Part shown: positions 3,425 to 14,005 of the stretch, in pieces
Layout of the letters: every line of letters begins with the position of its first letter
How positions within the stretch are numbered: position 1 is the stretch's first letter
Assembly (NCBI RefSeq): GCF_001293685.1
Contig: NZ_BCAG01000006.1
Location: 124,001-188,000 of the forward strand
Length of the DNA: 64,000 nt
DNA from: Desulfatitalea tepidiphila
Lineage (GTDB): Bacteria > Desulfobacterota > Desulfobacteria > Desulfobacterales > Desulfosarcinaceae
Reading direction: 5' to 3'
Made by a program: the position numbers and the translations under genes
The notes under the pieces: generated by a model
The model's database searches: none
The model's input: only the letters and a program-made list of their open reading frames with translations
What the model was told of the DNA's origin: nothing

Positions 3425-4308
3425 CAGGTCGCCTTCCCGAAAAATCCCTGGGGACGCAGCAGCAGCACTGCGGCCATCAGGATGAAAGTGAGAAACATGT
3501 CGAAAGCCGGAAGAAAACGTGTGCCGAAAGAAGAGAGCAGGCCGATGATCAGGGCCCCTAAAAATGCGCCTTTGAGACTGCCCAGGCCGCCGATCACCGC
3601 CACCACGAATGCATTGATGATAATACTTTCACCCATGCCGGGCGTCAGGAGTCCGACGTAGGGGACGGCCAGGGCGCCGCCCATCGCGCCGAGCCAGGTG
3701 CCGAACACGAATACGGATGTGAAGAGAGCCGGCACCGGGACCCCGATGGCGGCGGCCATTTCGCGTTCCGAGGAGGCCGCCCGAATGATGCGGCCATACC
3801 AGGTACGCTCGATGAGCGCCCACAGTCCCAATGCCACCAGCGGACCCACGATGATGATGAAGAGGTTGTAGGTGGGAAAATAGCGTCCGAGAATATCCAC
3901 CGAACCACTGAGCCCCGGTACGCTCGGCGACCCTAACGAGCCGCCGCCCCAGATGATCTTGACCAGATCGTCGAAGAGCAGCACAAAGGCGAATGTCAAC
4001 AGCAATTGATACGGCAGGGCCAGGTGGTAGACATAACGCAGGAAAAAGCGTTCGATGATGAAACCGGCCGCGCAAACCAGAATCGGGCCGATCAGCAGCC
4101 CGACCCAGAAATTGCCGCCCAGGGCGCTCAGGGCCGTGAAGCAGCAGTAGGCGCCCAACATGTAAAAACTGCCATGTGCAAAGTTGAGGACGCCCAGGAC
4201 GCCGAAGATGAGGGTCAAGCCGCTGGCCACCAGCCAGATGAACATCCCAGTGGAGAGACCGGCCAAACAGACGTGCACAATGGATTCCAGTGTCAAAACA
4301 GCCTCCAC
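3424..4308 (-). CDS. livH: LivH-type ABC transporter permease
   Basis: Partner permease of the HAAT importer, 294 residues, very hydrophobic. The motif LNFAHGSFYMLGAY (about residues 41-54) is the LivH hallmark equivalent to LNxAHGxxxMxGAY. It follows the binding-protein gene after 149 bases containing a strong hairpin, an arrangement that commonly lowers permease expression relative to the binding protein. Confidence 0.93.
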   Translation of the reverse strand: MEAVLTLESIVHVCLAGLSTGMFIWLVASGLTLIFGVLGVLNFAHGSFYMLGAYCCFTALSALGGNFWVGLLIGPILVCAAGFIIERFFLRYVYHLALPYQLLLTFAFVLLFDDLVKIIWGGGSLGSPSVPGLSGSVDILGRYFPTYNLFIIIVGPLVALGLWALIERTWYGRIIRAASSEREMAAAIGVPVPALFTSVFVFGTWLGAMGGALAVPYVGLLTPGMGESIIINAFVVAVIGGLGSLKGAFLGALIIGLLSSFGTRFLPAFDMFLTFILMAAVLLLRPQGFFGKAT

Positions 4309-4386
4309 TTCCCGGCATTATTCAATAGGGGAACACTATCGCCGGCGCTTCTCTGCACTCGTTGCCGTTGGCCACCGCCAGGGTAA

Positions 4387-4418
4387 CCGCGTTTCCACGC
4401 GATCTCGTGGAAACGCGG
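4387..4418 (-). terminator. Perfect 13-bp hairpin between livK and livH
   Basis: CCGCGTTTCCACG at 4387-4399 is perfectly complementary to 4406-4418, with loop CGATCT. There is no U-tract on either strand. It is best read as an attenuating or mRNA-stabilising stem after the binding-protein gene, consistent with the need for excess binding protein over permease. It could also be a REP-like repeat, although I see no second copy here. Confidence 0.6.
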
Positions 4419-4457
4419 CGGCGGGGCGAAGTCATTGAGAACCCGTTCGATCGTTCA

Positions 4458-5738
4458 TCAGAACGGCGGTTTGGAAGCGTCCCCTTCGAAAGGCGGCCGG
4501 TTGAAACACTCTTTCGCGGGCACCATGACCTGTTTGCCCATGATCTTGAAGGGGTATTTGGCATCCGCCACCGTCAACCCCCACGGCACGTCATACATGG
4601 CCTGGTGATCTTCTTTCCTGAAGACGCGCGGACCGGCCGGTGAATCCATCTGCATGCCTTCCAGGGCCTGGATCACCGCCTTGGTCTCCTTGGACCCGGA
4701 GGCCTCCACCGCTTTTTTGAAGGCGAACATCGTGGAGTAACCGGTTTCGGAGACATAGGCCGGGAAATGGTCCCAGCGTTTGCGGAAGCGCTGGACCCAT
4801 TCGTTGTTGCGGCTGTTGTTCGGGTAGAGGAAAAAGTAGCGGCCGGAGATCCAGATGTTATCGGGCATCTCCGCCCCGAGCCCTTCGAGCACATCCATGG
4901 CCGCGCCCACCGGGAACATGACGTGCTTGATTTTCTCGAACAAGCCGGCCTGGTTGGCCTGTTTGACGAAAGTGATCAACTCCCCCGCCCATTCGGTGGA
5001 ATAGAGTCCGTCGGGTTTGGCATCCATAATCGTGTTGATGTGGGGCCGGAAATCCGTGGTCCCGAAAGGCGCCCACGACTCCGCGGTAAAAGAGACATCT
5101 TTTTTGAGCTTTCCGAGCGTGTTTTTGAACATCTCCCAGCACGTGTAGCCATACTCATATTTGGGGCTGACCGTGGCCCAGGTCTTGGCCGGCAGATCCT
5201 TGGCCACGAAAGCGGCCGCATTGCCGTCCTGATAAGTCGCGTTGCAGATGCGGAAGATCTGGCGGACGCCGTTTTTGAACACCTGCTCCTCGGTGAGCTT
5301 CTCGGTGGCCGCATGGGTGACCATGAGCACCTTGTCCAGTTCGGCCATCACCGGCGCCAGAGCCAGGGCCTGACCCGAAGAGTCCACGCCGGCCAGGAAA
5401 TCGGCGCCCCAGCTATCGACGAAATAGCGTGCATTCTGGATCGCTTCCGGTGTTTTCAGGGTGGAATCCCGGAATTCGATCTCCAGTTTGTTGCCGGCGA
5501 TGCCGCCGGCCGCATTGATCTCCTCCATGCCCAGGGTGGCGCCCATCTTGTGAAAATCCCCGTAACCCGCCAACGTGCCTGACATCACCGCCTGGTACCC
5601 CACCTTGATGGGGCCTTTAATCTTGGGCGTCGCCGCCCAGAGCCCGGTGGGTTTGGCGAATCCGCCAAGGGCTGCCGCCCCGGTGGTTAAAAGTCCGGCT
5701 TGAATGAAACGTCTGCGTGTCCATCCCTTCTTTGCCAT
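4458..5738 (-). CDS. Tat-exported ABC substrate-binding protein (LivK-like)
   Basis: Periplasmic binding protein of the Peripla_BP_6 (leucine/amide-binding) family, 426 residues. The N-terminus has a twin-arginine signal (TRRRFIQAG at residues 7-15) followed by a hydrophobic stretch ending GLWAATP, so it is probably exported folded through Tat. The mature part begins with IKVGYQAVMSGTLAGYG and has the SLKTPE/ALALAPVMAE features of the family. A GGGGGAGG ribosome site precedes the ATG by 6 bases. First gene of the liv operon. Desulfobacterales carry many such proteins, often for aromatic or organic acids; the ligand is not determined. Confidence 0.9.
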   Translation of the reverse strand: MAKKGWTRRRFIQAGLLTTGAAALGGFAKPTGLWAATPKIKGPIKVGYQAVMSGTLAGYGDFHKMGATLGMEEINAAGGIAGNKLEIEFRDSTLKTPEAIQNARYFVDSWGADFLAGVDSSGQALALAPVMAELDKVLMVTHAATEKLTEEQVFKNGVRQIFRICNATYQDGNAAAFVAKDLPAKTWATVSPKYEYGYTCWEMFKNTLGKLKKDVSFTAESWAPFGTTDFRPHINTIMDAKPDGLYSTEWAGELITFVKQANQAGLFEKIKHVMFPVGAAMDVLEGLGAEMPDNIWISGRYFFLYPNNSRNNEWVQRFRKRWDHFPAYVSETGYSTMFAFKKAVEASGSKETKAVIQALEGMQMDSPAGPRVFRKEDHQAMYDVPWGLTVADAKYPFKIMGKQVMVPAKECFNRPPFEGDASKPPF

Positions 5739-6678: not shown

Positions 6679-6969
6679 TCAGGGTGTGACGGTTCCAACA
6701 TAGGTGCCGGCCATTTTCAGGGCCGCCACCATCTGCTCCGGACCGATGACATCCGGATCGTAGGTTACGGTGTTGATTTCACGGAACCCGCGAAATCCTC
6801 GGGTCACTTTTTTTACGCCCGCCAGCCCCTCCAGGGCCGCCTTGCCCACGTCGTATCATCGAACGTAAAAGGCGATTTCCGCCAGGGACTCTGCCTGAGC
6901 CGGAAACACAGCTGATGCCGCCGCGACCGTCACCGTCAGAATTAAGAACCAAAAGAGGTTGTATTTCAT
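6679..6969 (-). CDS. Secreted HMA-like protein with in-frame TGA (probable selenocysteine)
   Basis: Reading through one TGA at 6858-6856 gives a 96-residue protein: signal peptide MKYNLFWFL...AQA (1-26), then a small domain AEIAFYVR-U38-YDVGKAALEGLAGVKKV resembling the heavy-metal-associated fold, where U aligns with the second Cys of the usual CxxC followed by V..AL...GV..V. The frame stays open and coherent for 58 codons after TGA and ends at a normal TGA. Directly after the TGA the mRNA can form CGGCCC/GGGCUG with loop UGGAG, 22 bases downstream, matching bacterial SECIS spacing with G in the first loop bases. AAAGGAG precedes the ATG. It starts 31 bases after the msrAB stop. Alternatives: a nonsense-mutated pseudogene or a sequencing error. 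Confidence 0.75.
6818..6858 (-). promoter_or_regulatory. Candidate bacterial SECIS element
   Basis: Minus-strand RNA after the in-frame UGA: 16 bases, then a 6-bp stem (6839-6834 with 6828-6823, one G-U pair) closed by the 5-base loop UGGAG (6833-6829). The loop begins 22 bases after UGA and has a G in its first two positions, as known for SelB-dependent bacterial elements. The stem is short, so this needs comparison with homologues. Confidence 0.6.
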
Positions 6970-7000
6970 GAGTACTGCTCCTTTCCGAACACCGTCGCGC

Positions 7001-8107
7001 TCAACGAAACAGAGATCGATACTGTTCGTAGCCTTCTTTTTGCAGATCTTCCTTGGGAATGAACCGAAGGGCCGCCGAATTGATGCAGTAGCGCAACCCG
7101 GTGGGTTGTGGACCGTCCTTAAACACATGGCCGAGATGGGAATCGGCGTGCTTACTGCGCACCTCGGTGCGCACCACCAAGAACGCGTGGTCGGTCTTCT
7201 CCGTTATGTTGTCGGGTTCGAGGGGGCGCGTAAAACTTGGCCAGCCCGTTCCAGAGTCGTATTTATCCGTGGAGCTGAACAGTGGCTCGCTCGAGACGAT
7301 GTCCACATAGATGCCTTCACGGTGATTGTTCCAGTAGAGATTGTCGAAGGGCGGTTCGGTGCCCTCTTTTTGGGTCACCTTGTACTGCAGTGGGGAGAGC
7401 CGCCGGCGCAGCTCTTCCGGATCCGGTTTCTGGTAGCTTTGTTTGGTGGATGATGGGGGTTGAGCGTCGGCCCAGGCCTTTTCCAGGAATTGATCGCGTC
7501 CGGAACGGGAACGATAGTAATGATAGCGCAGGGGATTATTTTTATAGTAATTCTGGTGATACGGCTCGGCTGCGTAGAAGGGGCCCAGGGGTAGAATGTC
7601 GGTGACGATGGGCTTTTCGAAGCGGCCGGTGGAGGCGAGGTCCCGTTTCGATGACTCCGCCAGGCGATGTTCGATTTCGTCGGCATAGAATATGGCGCTG
7701 CGATACTGCGCGCCGCGATCCACAAACTGCCCCCCAGGGTCGGTAGGGTCCACATGGCGCCAGAAGTGCGCCAACAATGCGGCATAATCGATGCGACCGG
7801 GATCGTAGACAACTTTAACTGCTTCCACATGTCCCGTGCCGCCGGATGACACCTGCTTATAGGTTGGGTTGGCGACATGACCGCCGGTGTAACCGGATAT
7901 GACCTCGATGACGCCGGGTACTTTCTCAAAATCAGATTCCGTGCACCAGAAACAACCGCCTGCAAAGAAGGCACTCCTGGCTTTCATTTCAGCTCCTGTT
8001 TTACGATCGCGGGTATCGCTCTTACCGGTTGCACTGGAAAGCATCGCATAGCCCAGGAAGAAGATCGCCAAAGCAGCGATGGCAGTGATGATAGATGATA
8101 GTTTCAT
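7001..8107 (-). CDS. msrAB: Periplasmic bifunctional peptide-methionine sulfoxide reductase MsrA-MsrB
   Basis: 368 residues from the ATG after GGAGGTGTCT. An N-terminal hydrophobic anchor (about 5-24) directs it to the periplasmic side. The MsrA domain has AGGCFWCTE with catalytic Cys52; the MsrB domain has GTGWPSF, HLGHVF and RYCINS with catalytic Cys341. Domain order A-B as in PilB-type and other fused enzymes; the zinc CxxC pairs of many MsrB are absent. It would repair both S- and R-methionine sulfoxide in exported proteins. The two-component system ends 123 bases upstream and phased half-sites lie in the gap, so it is probably the target of that system. Confidence 0.93.
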
Positions 8108-8182
8108 AGACACCTCCAATGAGTCCGTCTGCGGCTGTTGAACACGCCGCATGATGTGTTCATTCGGATCATAAGCAGAGCG

Positions 8183-8230: not shown

Positions 8231-9316
8231 TCAGATGATGGGGTCGGTGGGCAGGGTCGGCAGTGCGATGCGGAAGCAAATGCGCCCGCCGGTGAGCTTC
8301 GCGTTCACCGTACCGTTGTGGGCTTCTACCAGTTCTTTGACCAGGGCCAGGCCGATGCCGGCTCCGCCGTGCTCGCGCGAGCGCGATTTTTCGCCGCGGT
8401 AGAAGCGTTCAAAGAGAAAGGGCAGGTCTTCGGGCAACAGCGCACCGGCCGGGTTGCTGAATCGGAAGACGGTATGGTTGTCGACCGCAGCGAGGTCGAT
8501 GGCGACCGACGCGCCCGGGGGCGTATACCGGACGGCGTTGTCGGTGAGGTTTCTCAAAATGCGGCCCACGGCGTTGCGATCGGCCCACATCATCAAGGTT
8601 TCGGGCGGAGCCGTGACTTTTACGGCTATCGCTTTACGATCGAATTCGGGGCGGAAACTCTCCACGGCTGTCTCGATCGCCTGACGTGCGTCGATGGGCT
8701 CGATTCGCAACCGACCTCTGGCCGCATCGGCTTTGGCCAGTTGCAGTACATCCTCCACCAATGAGGCCAGACGCAAGGCTTCGCTTTGCAGCAGCGCGAT
8801 CGTTTCGGGCGAGGAGGGAAGCACGCCGTCGTCGATCGCTTCCAGGTATCCGCGGATATTGGTCAGCGGGGTTCGCAATTCATGCGCCACATCGATCATC
8901 AATTTGCGTCGCAGGTTTTCGAGCTTGTCCAGGTCGGCGGCCATCCGGTTGAAGGCCCTGGCCAGTTGCCCGACTTCGTCCCGGCTGCCGGCCGGTACGC
9001 GGGCGCTGAAATCACCTGCCGCGATATCGCGAGTGATACCTGTCATGCGAGTCAGAGGTGTCAGGACCTTGCGCATCAATACATAGCTGAGGGTCACTGC
9101 CAACAGGACGGCCCCTGTGAAGGCCCACAACAGGTAACGGTGCACCGCGTCAATGAACATCGCGTGGGCCGGTTCGGGCGAGATATGGTACTTTTCCATC
9201 AGGGTGACGAAATAGCTGGCTGCCAGGGTATCGATGGCCAACCAAACCACCACCACCACAAAAATGATGACCACCATGGTGATGGCCAATAATTTGAGGA
9301 TCAGGTACCTGCGCAT
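8231..9316 (-). CDS. HAMP sensor histidine kinase
   Basis: 361 residues: transmembrane helix at about 8-27, a short periplasmic loop (28-62), second helix 63-80, HAMP linker about 82-133, HisKA with phosphorylatable H145 in VAHELRTP, then HATPase_c with N (NLTDNAVRYTPPG), G1 and G2 (GGAGIGLALVKELV) boxes. BaeS/CusS-like architecture. Its start overlaps the response-regulator gene by 16 bases, so the pair is coupled. The short sensor loop suggests detection of an envelope or redox signal; the linked msrAB supports oxidative stress, by inference. Confidence 0.92.
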   Translation of the reverse strand: MRRYLILKLLAITMVVIIFVVVVVWLAIDTLAASYFVTLMEKYHISPEPAHAMFIDAVHRYLLWAFTGAVLLAVTLSYVLMRKVLTPLTRMTGITRDIAAGDFSARVPAGSRDEVGQLARAFNRMAADLDKLENLRRKLMIDVAHELRTPLTNIRGYLEAIDDGVLPSSPETIALLQSEALRLASLVEDVLQLAKADAARGRLRIEPIDARQAIETAVESFRPEFDRKAIAVKVTAPPETLMMWADRNAVGRILRNLTDNAVRYTPPGASVAIDLAAVDNHTVFRFSNPAGALLPEDLPFLFERFYRGEKSRSREHGGAGIGLALVKELVEAHNGTVNAKLTGGRICFRIALPTLPTDPII

Positions 9317-10047
9317 CGATCGTCCGGGGAGTTAACGGATGCTCGGTCGGCAAAGCGATAACCGATACCGCGCACCGTGATGATGTAGGTTGGGCTTGAA
9401 AGCCGGGGCTCGATCTTCTGTCTGAGCTTGCCGATGTGGACATCCACCACCCGATCAACGACTACCGTGTCACCGGCCGGATAGAGGCGTGCCAGCAGCT
9501 CGTCGCGCGTGTAGGTGCGTCCGGGTCGGGAGGCGAGGGCTTTGAGCAGTGCGTATTCATGTGGTGTGAGCTCCACCGTTTTGCCGCAAATGGTCAGGCG
9601 CCGGTTTTCCAAATCCAGGATGAGGTCGCCATGGGCGATAACCTTAGGGGGCATTTCCAACGCTCGCGGGGTGCGGCGCAGTACGGCCTGTACCCTGGCC
9701 ACCAGTTCACGAGGGCTGAAGGGTTTGACCACATAATCATCGGCCCCGAGGGTCAGCCCGGCCACCTTATCGATCTCTTCACTCCGTGCGGTGAGCATGA
9801 TGACCGGCACATCCGAGCGTTGACGCAGACGGCGGCATACCTCCCAGCCGTCCACGCGGGGCAGCATCAGATCCAGAATCACCAGGTCGGGGCGATGGCG
9901 CTCGGCCAGTTCCAACCCTTTGCGGCCATCGGACGCGGTAAGGGCCCGGAATCCTTCCCGTTCCAGGTAGAGCGCCACCAGTGCCACCGTATTGGGATCG
10001 TCCTCGATCACCAGAATGGTTTTAAATTGCTCCGGCGTTTTTGTCAT
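9301..10047 (-). CDS. OmpR-family response regulator
   Basis: 248 residues. Receiver domain with phospho-acceptor D59 (VILDLML), acidic pocket IEDD near 14-17, and the switch lysine in DDYVVKPFSP. The C-terminal winged helix has ELTPHEYALLKAL and VDVHIGKLRQKIEP...IITVRGIGYRF, so it is a DNA-binding OmpR/PhoB type. Partner of the downstream kinase; the likely target sites are the phased repeats at 8183-8221. It starts 73 bases after the NodB gene end on the same strand. Confidence 0.93.
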   Translation of the reverse strand: MTKTPEQFKTILVIEDDPNTVALVALYLEREGFRALTASDGRKGLELAERHRPDLVILDLMLPRVDGWEVCRRLRQRSDVPVIMLTARSEEIDKVAGLTLGADDYVVKPFSPRELVARVQAVLRRTPRALEMPPKVIAHGDLILDLENRRLTICGKTVELTPHEYALLKALASRPGRTYTRDELLARLYPAGDTVVVDRVVDVHIGKLRQKIEPRLSSPTYIITVRGIGYRFADRASVNSPDDRCAGT

Positions 10048-10948: not shown

Positions 10949-13900
10949 TCAAGCATCGCCGCGGGCGGCGACAATCCAGACCGACTCCGGATTGCCGCCG
11001 GAATGTGCCGCATGCCGGACGCTGAAACCGCTTTCGGCCAGCATGCCGGTGATGACATCCACCGGCCGGTGGAAAGCCGGAATGCCATTGAGCCTCATGC
11101 GCAGGGCATCGATTTTCCACAACAGGGAGGTGCGGCCGTCTGGCGGCGGCACCACGGCGCGGATGACGACCAGGGCCTCGGCGCCCAAGGCCCCGCGCAG
11201 GCGCTCGAAGGTCAGGCGCAATTCGCCGTCGTCCAGGAAATGGATCACATCCAGTAGCAGGGCCGCATCGGCGGCCGTCGGCGCCTCGGGGATGTTGGGC
11301 GCCAGGTCGCAGGCCGCACGCCCGCGATCACCGAACACCCTGGCGGCCACCCGGATGCGCTCGGGGTCCGGATCGATGCCGTAAACCCGCGCGTCGTCGA
11401 AGCGTTCGAGCACCCAGGCGCCCGGCACGCCGAAGCCGCAACCGATGTCCAGCACGGTTCCCAGGGGCCGTGCGCCGTCGAGATAGAGGGGAAGCTCGGC
11501 AAAGAGCACGTCCCATTTCAGCTTGAAGCGTGCAAAAAGCCTGGGGTAGGTCTCCAGAGGACGGTAGCGGGCCAGGATCCGCTGGTGACGGTCCGAACCT
11601 GTGGCGGGCCTGGCGCTCCGCCGGGCAAAATACCACCCCAGCATGGGCGGCAGCAGCAGGAAAGCCCCAAGCAAAGAATAGCTGATGCCCAGAAACGAGG
11701 TGATACCGGCACTGTAAAGCAACGCATGGTCTGCGGTGCACAGCACCCCGAAGCCGATCAGCGTGGACACCGCAGCCATGATCACCGTCATTTTGATGCG
11801 TTCGAAGGCCGGATCGTTCATACCGCCGTAACGCTGGTAGGCCCGCACCAGGAAAAGCGCATAGTCGATGCCCATACCCATCACGATAATGCCGAGCATC
11901 AGGGCCGGGATATCCAGCGGATGACCGGAAAGATGGAGGGTGCCCAGGGTGCCGACGAGCGCGAAGAGCACCGGCGACAGGGTGATGGCGGTCAATTTCA
12001 GGTCCAGGAAGAAGAAAAAAAGCAGGAGGGCGACGCTGAGACCGATCACCGCCAGCATCTTCATGAAAGTCGAAAAGAGCAAGCGCCCCAAGGTTTCGGA
12101 AAAATAGACCGGATCGAATACCCGGGCCAATTCCCCGTAGCGCCCATAAAAGTCGGCGGCTGTATAATCCGGCCCCGGCGTCAAGGTCGCGAACTGCATC
12201 CAGGTGCCGTCCGCCTGCCGCACGATGCCCATGAGGGGGAGGATCTCTTCGGGCAAACCGGGATCGGCCGGCGGTTTCGAGGCGCCAAGCATCTCGAAAA
12301 AGGGTGCGAAGGCCTCGTCGCTGAACCCCAGTTCAGCAGCCCCCGCCAGGGCATCATCGAGCGCAGCGATCCGTTCCGGCTGCCAGAAGGCCCGCCAGGC
12401 CGCAAAATTTTCGGCGCGCCGCTGCGGGCCCGGAAAAACCAGGGCCGGCAGGAATCCGGGGCCCAGACGGCCGGCCCGCACATCTTCGCTCACTCGGCTC
12501 AAGAGCCGATCCCCGGCCGCCTGCAGCGCCGCCGGCGAGTCCGCAGTGGCCATCACGAAGAGTTTGTCGAAGATGCCGCCGCCCCACACCCGATTCATCA
12601 GCGTCTGGGCCGCCTCGGTGTCCCGGCTCACCGTGTTCATGCGGCTCAGATCGGTATTGAAGACCGGCTTGGCGAAAAAGAGCATGACCCCCATGAAGAC
12701 AAAGGCAGCGGCCGCCGTCCACCGACCGGCCACAGGGAGCTTGGCCACCAGCCGCCGAAACGGCAAAGAACGCGGCCGGGCCGGCGGCATTTGCGGAAAA
12801 ATTCGCGGAAAAACCAGATGGACGAAGATAAACGAGGCGGCAATGCCGATGGCGGCGAATTGGCCGAGCTGTTCGAGCACCGGAAATCCGGTCAGATTCA
12901 GGGCGCTGAAGGCGCCGATGGTTGTCAAGGCCGCCATCAGTCCCACGGCCCACACCTCCCTGGCGGCCGCGCGGCCGGTGGTCGTTTCGGATCGATCCAG
13001 AAAAAGCAGATAGGCGATGCCGTGGTCCACGGTGATCGAAATGATCGCACCGCCGAACCCGAGGGCCAGGATGGAGACCGCTTCATGCCAGAGGGCCAGC
13101 AGGAAAAAGGCGGTCACCGTACCGGCCAGGGCCGGCAGAAAGGCGCACAAGCCGAGCAAAGGCCGTGGAAAGGCGAACAACAGCAGCAGGGCGATGCCCA
13201 CGGTGGAGAGCACGATGGCCTGCTGCACGTCCCTGCGGGCGATGCGCTCATTGTCCAGGGCGGCGCGGTAGGCACCCATGGGCGTCATGACCACGGGACC
13301 CAATTCCGGGGATTGGGACAACTCCTCCAGAAAACGGGTCAGCCGGCCGGCAAAGGCGGTGTCGGTGCCGGCCGCCGCCGGCGTGGCCAGGATCAACAGA
13401 TGGCGATGGTCGGCCGAAAGGAGCTGTCCCTTGTAAATGTCGATGTTTTCGGCCGGCGCCAGGTGGGCCAGCCGGGCCATGATGAGGTCCCGAAAGGCCA
13501 GGGGATCCCGGGCGATGAATCGGGTCTGTCCGATGGCCTCCAGACCGAGCAGCTGGGTGTGCAGTTCGACCAGCTGGCGCTGCACGGCGTCGGTGGCCAG
13601 AAGCGGCCGGATCCGGGTGTCGAGTTCATCGGCCGAAAAAAGCACCGGCAGGGAATCGACGACGTGGTCGAGCAGATCGGGAATCACGGCCTGCATGGCG
13701 TCGGTGCCCACCTGCCTGAACAGGCCGCTGGCCTTCATCCGTTCCGTGACCCAGTGGGCGCTTTGCACCAGCCGGTCGGGATCGGGAGCGGCCGTACCCA
13801 GGTCCACGACCAGTTCGCCCTGCATGGGATGGTGTTTGAAAATCTCGCCGGCATCGGCGAGGACCGGGTCGTTTTGGGGCAGGTAACGGATCACATCGGT

Positions 13901-14005
13901 GTCGATATGGGTCAGGTGGAAACCGGCCGCGAGCAGCACGCCGATCAGGCCGAAGGTGACGACCAACAGGGCGAAGTTGAACCTGGGGGGTTTCATCGAA
14001 TTCAT
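10949..14005 (-). CDS. MMPL/RND-type exporter fused to a SAM methyltransferase
   Basis: 1018 residues. Two RND-like repeats, each with one early helix, a large periplasmic loop and a cluster of helices (about 250-400 and 640-790), as in MMPL lipid exporters. After about residue 800 a soluble class I methyltransferase follows with motif I VLDIGCGFGVPG, YGIDPDPER, and LLLDVIHFLDDGE. Fusion of exporter and methyltransferase is unusual; separate MMPL and methyltransferase genes occur in aryl-polyene and related lipid clusters. Overlaps the GT25 gene by 4 bases. Likely exports and modifies a lipid-linked molecule; the substrate is unknown. Confidence 0.88.
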   Translation of the reverse strand: MNSMKPPRFNFALLVVTFGLIGVLLAAGFHLTHIDTDVIRYLPQNDPVLADAGEIFKHHPMQGELVVDLGTAAPDPDRLVQSAHWVTERMKASGLFRQVGTDAMQAVIPDLLDHVVDSLPVLFSADELDTRIRPLLATDAVQRQLVELHTQLLGLEAIGQTRFIARDPLAFRDLIMARLAHLAPAENIDIYKGQLLSADHRHLLILATPAAAGTDTAFAGRLTRFLEELSQSPELGPVVMTPMGAYRAALDNERIARRDVQQAIVLSTVGIALLLLFAFPRPLLGLCAFLPALAGTVTAFFLLALWHEAVSILALGFGGAIISITVDHGIAYLLFLDRSETTTGRAAAREVWAVGLMAALTTIGAFSALNLTGFPVLEQLGQFAAIGIAASFIFVHLVFPRIFPQMPPARPRSLPFRRLVAKLPVAGRWTAAAAFVFMGVMLFFAKPVFNTDLSRMNTVSRDTEAAQTLMNRVWGGGIFDKLFVMATADSPAALQAAGDRLLSRVSEDVRAGRLGPGFLPALVFPGPQRRAENFAAWRAFWQPERIAALDDALAGAAELGFSDEAFAPFFEMLGASKPPADPGLPEEILPLMGIVRQADGTWMQFATLTPGPDYTAADFYGRYGELARVFDPVYFSETLGRLLFSTFMKMLAVIGLSVALLLFFFFLDLKLTAITLSPVLFALVGTLGTLHLSGHPLDIPALMLGIIVMGMGIDYALFLVRAYQRYGGMNDPAFERIKMTVIMAAVSTLIGFGVLCTADHALLYSAGITSFLGISYSLLGAFLLLPPMLGWYFARRSARPATGSDRHQRILARYRPLETYPRLFARFKLKWDVLFAELPLYLDGARPLGTVLDIGCGFGVPGAWVLERFDDARVYGIDPDPERIRVAARVFGDRGRAACDLAPNIPEAPTAADAALLLDVIHFLDDGELRLTFERLRGALGAEALVVIRAVVPPPDGRTSLLWKIDALRMRLNGIPAFHRPVDVITGMLAESGFSVRHAAHSGGNPESVWIVAARGDA

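What the first reader, a model, noticed from the sequence alone, without database searches (positions are those of the whole stretch)
6679..6969. Probable new selenoprotein: secreted HMA-like protein encoded through an in-frame TGA
A signal-peptide protein continues coherently across TGA (codon 38) for 58 residues with an intact domain: FYVR-U-YDVGKAALEGLAGV. U sits where the second metal-binding Cys of HMA domains lies. A bSECIS-type hairpin (UGGAG loop, 22 bases after UGA) is present directly downstream. It is next to msrAB, which repairs oxidised methionine, fitting a redox role for Sec. HMA-like selenoproteins have been reported in some deltaproteobacteria, as I recall, but this operon context is not familiar to me.
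Basis: partly seen in the sequence, partly recalled or inferred. Interest (0 to 1): 0.85.

Follow-up and report, generated by a model that had tools for sequence, protein, structure and literature searches.

The report
Secreted selenoprotein linked to Msr genes
A small secreted bacterial protein reads a stop codon as the rare amino acid selenocysteine in nearly every relative found, and its gene often sits beside genes that repair oxidised methionine, so it is probably a selenium-based part of that repair system.

Summary
On the minus strand (6969-6679) a 96-residue protein with a signal-peptide-like start runs through an in-frame TGA at codon 38. The TGA is in 33 of 35 matches among related genomes (the other two start after it) and in 46 of 47 loci from a scan of 84,980 species genomes made with the part after the TGA; no Cys version was seen. 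A SECIS hairpin fits the published bacterial model in 50 of 64 genes, against a mean of 5.1 when codons are resampled synonymously. The genome has tRNA-Sec, SelA, SelB and SelD. No Pfam or NCBIfam family reaches its cut-off. The predicted fold is ferredoxin-like, nearest MerP/HMA, with MsrA's core also matching; CxxC is absent and Sec is the only Cys/Sec in 63 of 63 domains. msrA/msrB lies within 2 kb on the same strand in 28 of 47 loci, in several orders, once as an MsrB fusion. Best reading: a Sec redox component of periplasmic methionine-sulfoxide repair. Sec is near-certain; the reaction is inferred. A 2008 table's "MerP" selenoprotein may be an earlier sighting.

The parts
6679..6969 (-). 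Selenoprotein gene, 96 aa: signal-peptide-like start plus ferredoxin-like domain FYVRUYDVGKAALEGL...REINTVTYDP
   Evidence: signal peptide by eye
6856..6858 (-). In-frame TGA read as selenocysteine (codon 38)
   Evidence: 33 of 35 matches carry a TGA, the other two start downstream of it; 46 of 47 named-genome loci
6823..6839 (-). bSECIS hairpin, loop UGGAG starting 22 nt after the UGA
   Evidence: (93.1% of cells paired, 4 of 6 pairs with two-sided changes)
6970..6994 (-). Ribosome-binding-like site AAGGAG upstream of the ATG
   Evidence: read from sequence
7001..8152 (-). msrAB, MsrA-MsrB fusion (hydrophobic start, probably exported), 31 bp upstream of the selenoprotein gene
   Evidence: PMSR 204.7 bits and SelR 162.7 bits
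6183..6605 (-). DM13-domain protein, 73 bp downstream; no hit at the 47 named loci
   Evidence: DM13 49.3 bits
8231..9316 (-). Histidine kinase (HAMP, HisKA, HATPase_c) upstream of msrAB
   Evidence: kinases recur at related loci
9301..10047 (-). Response regulator (Response_reg, Trans_reg_C)
   Evidence: regulators recur at related loci

Best explanation
The gene makes an exported selenoprotein. SelB and tRNA-Sec recode UGA-38, guided by the hairpin 22 nt downstream. The mature ~70-residue domain is a single ferredoxin-like unit with one reactive residue, Sec, just after strand 1, where HMA proteins have the second Cys of CxxC and MsrA has its catalytic Cys. It most likely works as a Sec redox component of periplasmic methionine-sulfoxide repair: the selenol either reduces a sulfoxide itself, or reduces or resolves the oxidised MsrA/MsrB domains encoded beside it. 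The oxidised Se form would need an outside reductant, because the protein has no Cys. Shown here by computation: conserved UGA, SECIS, Sec machinery, predicted fold, gene linkage. Inferred: export, redox role, substrate and partner.
For: TGA in 33 of 35 matches, the other two not reaching the codon; 30 of 30 fetched loci have U before YDV, YSV or YNV; 46 of 47 named loci. SECIS covariation; the loop Leu codon is CTG in 62 of 63, elsewhere after the UGA CTG is 75 of 173 Leu codons; bSECIS model met by 50 of 64 against 5.1 expected. tRNA-Sec 73.4 bits, SelB 374 bits, SelD 380 bits, SelA 620 bits. msrA/msrB within 2 kb and on the same strand in 28 of 47 loci, with one msr hit in 397,813 bp further away. 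In L056 the domain is fused to the C-terminus of an MsrB with a twin-arginine-like start. U, E39 and G26 are invariant in 63 of 63; hhalign pairs U with MsrA's catalytic Cys and E39 with the Glu before its YDP motif.
Against: No protein or activity data. 14 of 47 loci show no msr and no SUOX-type gene, though some of these contigs end close by. MsrA's GCFW and its C-terminal substrate region are missing, so it is not an ordinary MsrA. Profile and structure comparison rank HMA above MsrA. tRNA-Sec is found in 23 of the 28 gene-bearing genomes, but also in 154 of all 195 searched, so that co-occurrence says little.
Confidence: 0.7

Rival explanations
1. A periplasmic metal (Hg, Cu) carrier of the MerP/CopZ type that uses Sec as a ligand, perhaps as a dimer; the msr genes reflect general stress clustering.
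Against: 0 of 63 have Cys at the first HMA ligand position or anywhere else in the domain. Of the six neighbour clusters found at three or more loci, none is a metal transporter by the representatives scanned or read, while msr genes recur at 28 of 47. Pfam PMSR is matched by 31 of 63 members against 8 of 63 for HMA at E up to 1, all weak.
Confidence: 0.2
2. A narrower form of the best explanation: a shrunken MsrA, a minimal methionine-S-sulfoxide (or small sulfoxide) reductase that keeps the catalytic chalcogen and the Glu, with Sec making up for the lost substrate pocket.
For: Ungapped register from U through GV to G[FWY]xG against MsrA's GCFW...GV...GYxGG, with the Glu matched; E. coli MsrA core aligns at TM 0.72 by query length; all 63 members match NF041383, whose matching part also matches MsrA; MsrB fusion in L056. 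Sister genomes carry a true Sec-MsrA with GUFW.
Against: W of GCFW is absent in 63 of 63 and the region after the second helix is missing; HMA scores higher in profile and structure comparison. Glu at that place also occurs in 2 of the 6 HMA rows that one search printed (of 9 in A7).
Confidence: 0.25
3. The TGA is a real stop, or a sequencing error or decayed gene.
For: TGA also ends this same gene, so TGA serves as a stop in this genome. L046 is a broken or chimeric copy and L041 is frameshifted.
Against: The TGA is kept at loci titled Desulfobacterota or Deltaproteobacteria, Nitrospirota, SAR324 and Myxococcales, with conserved protein after it and a SECIS.
Confidence: 0.02

Closest known systems
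MerP / CopZ (HMA, PF00403)
   Same: Size and betaalphabetabetaalphabeta fold; export (MerP, recalled); U at the second Cys position
   Different: First Cys in 0 of 63; G[FWY] motif after strand 2 and a two-residue longer loop before YDP; no recurring metal-resistance neighbours seen
MsrA (PF01625), including Sec-MsrA (GUFW)
   Same: U in the place of the catalytic Cys, Glu before YDP, GV...G[FWY]xG register, msr gene context
   Different: GCFW is replaced by xUYD in 59 of 63 and W is never there; no C-terminal substrate region; about half the size
NF041115 UxxU_metal_bind
   Same: Small selenoprotein with HMA-like sequence
   Different: 29-30 bits against a cut-off of 95; one Sec, no UxxU
NF041383 VPGUxxT thioredoxin-like selenoprotein type 2
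   Same: Its part from about position 140 on is MsrA-like and matches all 63 members weakly
   Different: 28-29 bits against a cut-off of 275; no VPGU domain
'Mercuric transport protein MerP' selenoprotein row in PMC2398784 Table 2
   Same: Name, no UxxC/CxxU motif given, 0 Cys homologues in that data set
   Different: Sequence not shown in the text seen; identity cannot be judged

Membership tests
Bacterial selenoprotein with bSECIS | In-frame UGA conserved among homologues | tested here: met
   46 of 47 loci; 33 of 35 matches, two not reaching the codon; exceptions L046 (broken) and L100 (Ser)
Bacterial selenoprotein with bSECIS | Hairpin with 3-9 nt loop, G in the first two loop bases, 16-37 nt spacing, energy at most -7.5 (model as printed in PMC13188914) | tested here: met
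   window gene -9.7 kcal/mol; 50 of 64 genes, 5.1 expected from synonymous resampling. My own script, not bSECISearch
Bacterial selenoprotein with bSECIS | selA, selB, selC, selD in the genome | tested here: met
   each over its cut-off
Bacterial selenoprotein with bSECIS | Selenium shown in the protein | not testable with these tools
   needs 75Se or mass spectrometry
HMA (PF00403) | CxxC metal-binding motif | tested here: not met
   0 of 63 with Cys at -3 or elsewhere in the domain
HMA (PF00403) | Ferredoxin-like betaalphabetabetaalphabeta fold | tested here: met
HMA (PF00403) | Score over Pfam cut-off | tested here: not met
   window protein: PF00403 not listed at E up to 10; 8 of 63 members at E up to 1, best 0.0075
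MsrA (PF01625) | GCFW/GUFW catalytic motif | tested here: not met
   UYD in 59 of 63, W in 0 of 63
MsrA (PF01625) | Catalytic chalcogen and Glu in the MsrA register | tested here: met
   the catalytic role of the Glu is recalled
MsrA (PF01625) | Methionine-sulfoxide reductase activity | not testable with these tools
   enzyme assay needed
NF041115 UxxU_metal_bind | Score over cut-off and UxxU | tested here: not met

The most novel reading that the evidence does not exclude
An obligate-selenocysteine protein family with no cysteine counterpart, forming a new Sec-dependent branch of periplasmic methionine-sulfoxide repair (a minimal MsrA-like reductase or the electron relay for MsrAB), missed so far because discovery methods rest on Cys/Sec pairs.
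Probability: 0.35. Interest if true: 0.8.

Novelty: new variant of a known kind. Interest (0 to 1): 0.62.

Why it matters
[quoted passage not shown] a family kept as Sec across several phyla with no Cys form found would be a systematic blind spot. It would also tie selenium to periplasmic methionine repair in anaerobes and give a small, testable case of why Sec cannot be swapped for Cys.

Tried and rejected
Reading the plus strand at the given coordinates: no coherent protein. HMA (PF00403) in the own genome: five hits, none of them this gene. NF041383 as the family: rejected, since it matches MsrA too and none of 195 genomes passes its cut-off. Plasmids: no match. DM13 as a conserved partner: no hit at the 47 named loci. 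E39 as proof of MsrA descent: rejected as sole proof, because some HMA rows have Glu there. tRNA-Sec co-occurrence as support: weak, since 154 of 195 genomes have it. The 50 rows that VIA-align shows include no MsrA; this excludes nothing, and Foldseek lists MsrA. PHROGs and PADLOC were not searched.

Literature seen: PMC13188914 (outline; sections 5, 7 and 9; passages), PMC12013277 (outline; section 7), PMC9312934 and PMC5029168 (passages), PMC2398784 (section 6 parts 1-2; passages). Text searches: (of these I saw listings and the starts of abstracts). In what I saw I recognised no FYVxUYDVG or msr-linked family, but many table rows give no motif. Zhang and Gladyshev 2007 and two papers by Haft and co-authors were not held and remain unchecked; the 2007 paper, on an Olavius symbiont, is a likely place for an earlier sighting (L084 is titled as such a symbiont).

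Rows dropped and limits: L041 (frameshifted) was left out of A3 and A5; one search used 63 of 64 genes for its column counts (L041 excluded). L046 and L100 were left out of the gene sets, whose 64 genes were chosen because they carry the TGA. L014-L043, L044-L090 and L091-L100 overlap in genomes; identical sequences were removed. Among the 47 named loci, 46 C-terminal parts differ, L047 and L050 share a chromosome, and related loci are not independent. A7 (HMA) rows were taken from HMA hits, which favours rows similar to this family. The Glu check printed only 6 of 9 HMA and 2 of 10 MsrA rows (identifiers collided).

Full report
What is there. On the minus strand of the window, ATG at 6969 opens a 96-residue frame with an in-frame TGA at 6858-6856 and a final TGA at 6681-6679. 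The protein is MKYNLFWFLILTVTVAAASAVFPAQA-ESLAEIAFYVR-U-YDVGKAALEGLAGVKKVTRGFRGFREINTVTYDPDVIGPEQMVAALKMAGTYVGTVTP; the first part looks like a signal peptide (by eye). It lies 31 bp after msrAB and 73 bp before a DM13-domain gene, with a response regulator and a histidine kinase upstream on the same strand.

Is the TGA read through? A search of 195 related genomes found 28 with the gene; 33 of 35 matches carry one TGA and the other two begin after that codon. All 30 fetched loci have U at the same place. A scan of one genome for each of 84,980 species, using only the part after the TGA, gave 47 loci. In 45 of them U directly precedes the match, in L083 U precedes a match that starts three residues late, and L046 lacks it and looks chimeric or broken. 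By their titles the loci come from Desulfobacterota or Deltaproteobacteria, Nitrospirota, SAR324, Myxococcales and two Olavius symbionts; nearly all are metagenome assemblies. No Cys form was found. A profile search of 395 genomes of the phylum gave ten strong hits (window included), nine with U and one (L100) with Ser; after these, scores drop to 33 bits and below, and those read are HMA proteins. Divergent Cys forms could be missed, because the scan needs conserved stretches.

SECIS. Thirty sequences align without gaps over 48 nt. In the 29 distinct rows the six-pair helix around the UGGAR-type loop is kept in 93.1% of cells, four of six pairs show two-sided changes, and shifted versions pair at 23-57%. 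Because the helix lies in coding sequence, synonymous choice was tested: the loop Leu codon is CTG in 62 of 63 (75 of 173 elsewhere after the UGA), and in 200 synonymous resamplings 5.1 of 64 genes on average (maximum 11) meet the bSECIS model printed in PMC13188914, against 50 of 64 real ones. UGGA at +22 is found in 63 of 64, against 31.7 on average (maximum 41). Fourteen of 64 miss the energy limit.

Machinery. tRNA-Sec, SelA, SelB and SelD are each present above their cut-offs, and selD itself has an in-frame TGA. Of the 28 genomes with the gene, tRNA-Sec was found in 23 (read). Of the other five, four have full-length SelB and G189 (81% complete) has only a partial hit below the cut-off. 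As a control, tRNA-Sec is in 154 of all 195 genomes, so this co-occurrence is expected anyway.

Context. msrA and/or msrB lies within 2 kb, always on the same strand, in 28 of 47 loci, in orders A-B-SEL (15), SEL-A-B (5), B-A-SEL (3), SEL-B-A (2), MoCo-B-SEL (1), SEL-B (1) and B-SEL (1, a fusion); beyond 2 kb one msr hit occurs in 397,813 bp. A SUOX-type molybdoenzyme lies upstream in six loci: within 1 kb in five that have no msr gene nearby, and about 2 kb away in L058. One member scanned is PF00174, with scores far below the cut-offs of MsrP and sulfite dehydrogenases. Genes of the kinase and regulator clusters lie within 3.5 kb on the same strand in 19 of 47 (identity scanned for two loci and the window). 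In L056 an MsrB with a twin-arginine-like start is continuous with the Sec domain: 4113-4925, 270 residues. Fourteen loci show neither msr nor SUOX; some of these contigs end within a few hundred bases (L052, L071).

Mechanism. With one selenol and no Cys, the protein is a poor HMA-type metal site and a plausible one-Sec redox centre. The repeated and rearranged linkage to MsrA/MsrB, and the fusion, point to methionine-sulfoxide repair in the periplasm. Whether it acts on the sulfoxide or on the Msr enzymes is open; I put the redox role with Msr at about 0.7, and the two sub-forms at similar odds (the shrunken-MsrA rival is one of them, so the confidences overlap).

Novelty. In Table 1 of PMC13188914 (119 families by its own count) I recognise no entry for this family, though many rows give no motif, and the text searches listed under Tried and rejected showed none. 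One caution: PMC2398784 Table 2 lists a 'Mercuric transport protein MerP' selenoprotein with no CxxU/UxxC motif and 0 Cys homologues in its data, which may be this family under another name; the 2007 paper that is its likely source was not held.

Noticed in passing
L056:4113-4925: MsrB with a twin-arginine-like start fused to the Sec domain in one frame of 270 residues (TGA read as Sec).
   Followed up: partly
L058, L063, L064, L067, L068, L082, upstream of the gene: SUOX-fold molybdoenzyme (PF00174 in the one scanned) with a twin-arginine-like start and no close named family; a candidate sulfoxide or sulfite enzyme.
   Followed up: partly
L158-L160: Full-length MsrA with GUFW (Sec-MsrA) in sister genomes that also carry Cys MsrA.
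   Followed up: no
NF041383 from about position 140: The family named thioredoxin-like has an MsrA-like later part: it matches the window's MsrA and 140 of 195 genomes searched have a match, most of those listed at this part.
   Followed up: partly
L100:1477-1776: Divergent homologue with Ser where Sec would be; no msr gene recognised by eye in the 3 kb held.
   Followed up: partly
L046 around 8001: The conserved part joins a response-regulator-like start; chimera or broken copy.
   Followed up: no
G094, G116, G143, G152, G162: Two matches to the selenoprotein gene in one genome.
   Followed up: no
L061, L068, L089: Pyridine nucleotide-disulphide oxidoreductase cluster within 5 kb (L068 member scanned); L068 and L064 also have a glucokinase-cluster gene just upstream of the molybdoenzyme.
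   Followed up: partly
window 10949-14005: Long membrane transporter (RND/MMPL-like by eye) continuing into a methyltransferase-like C-terminus.
   Followed up: no
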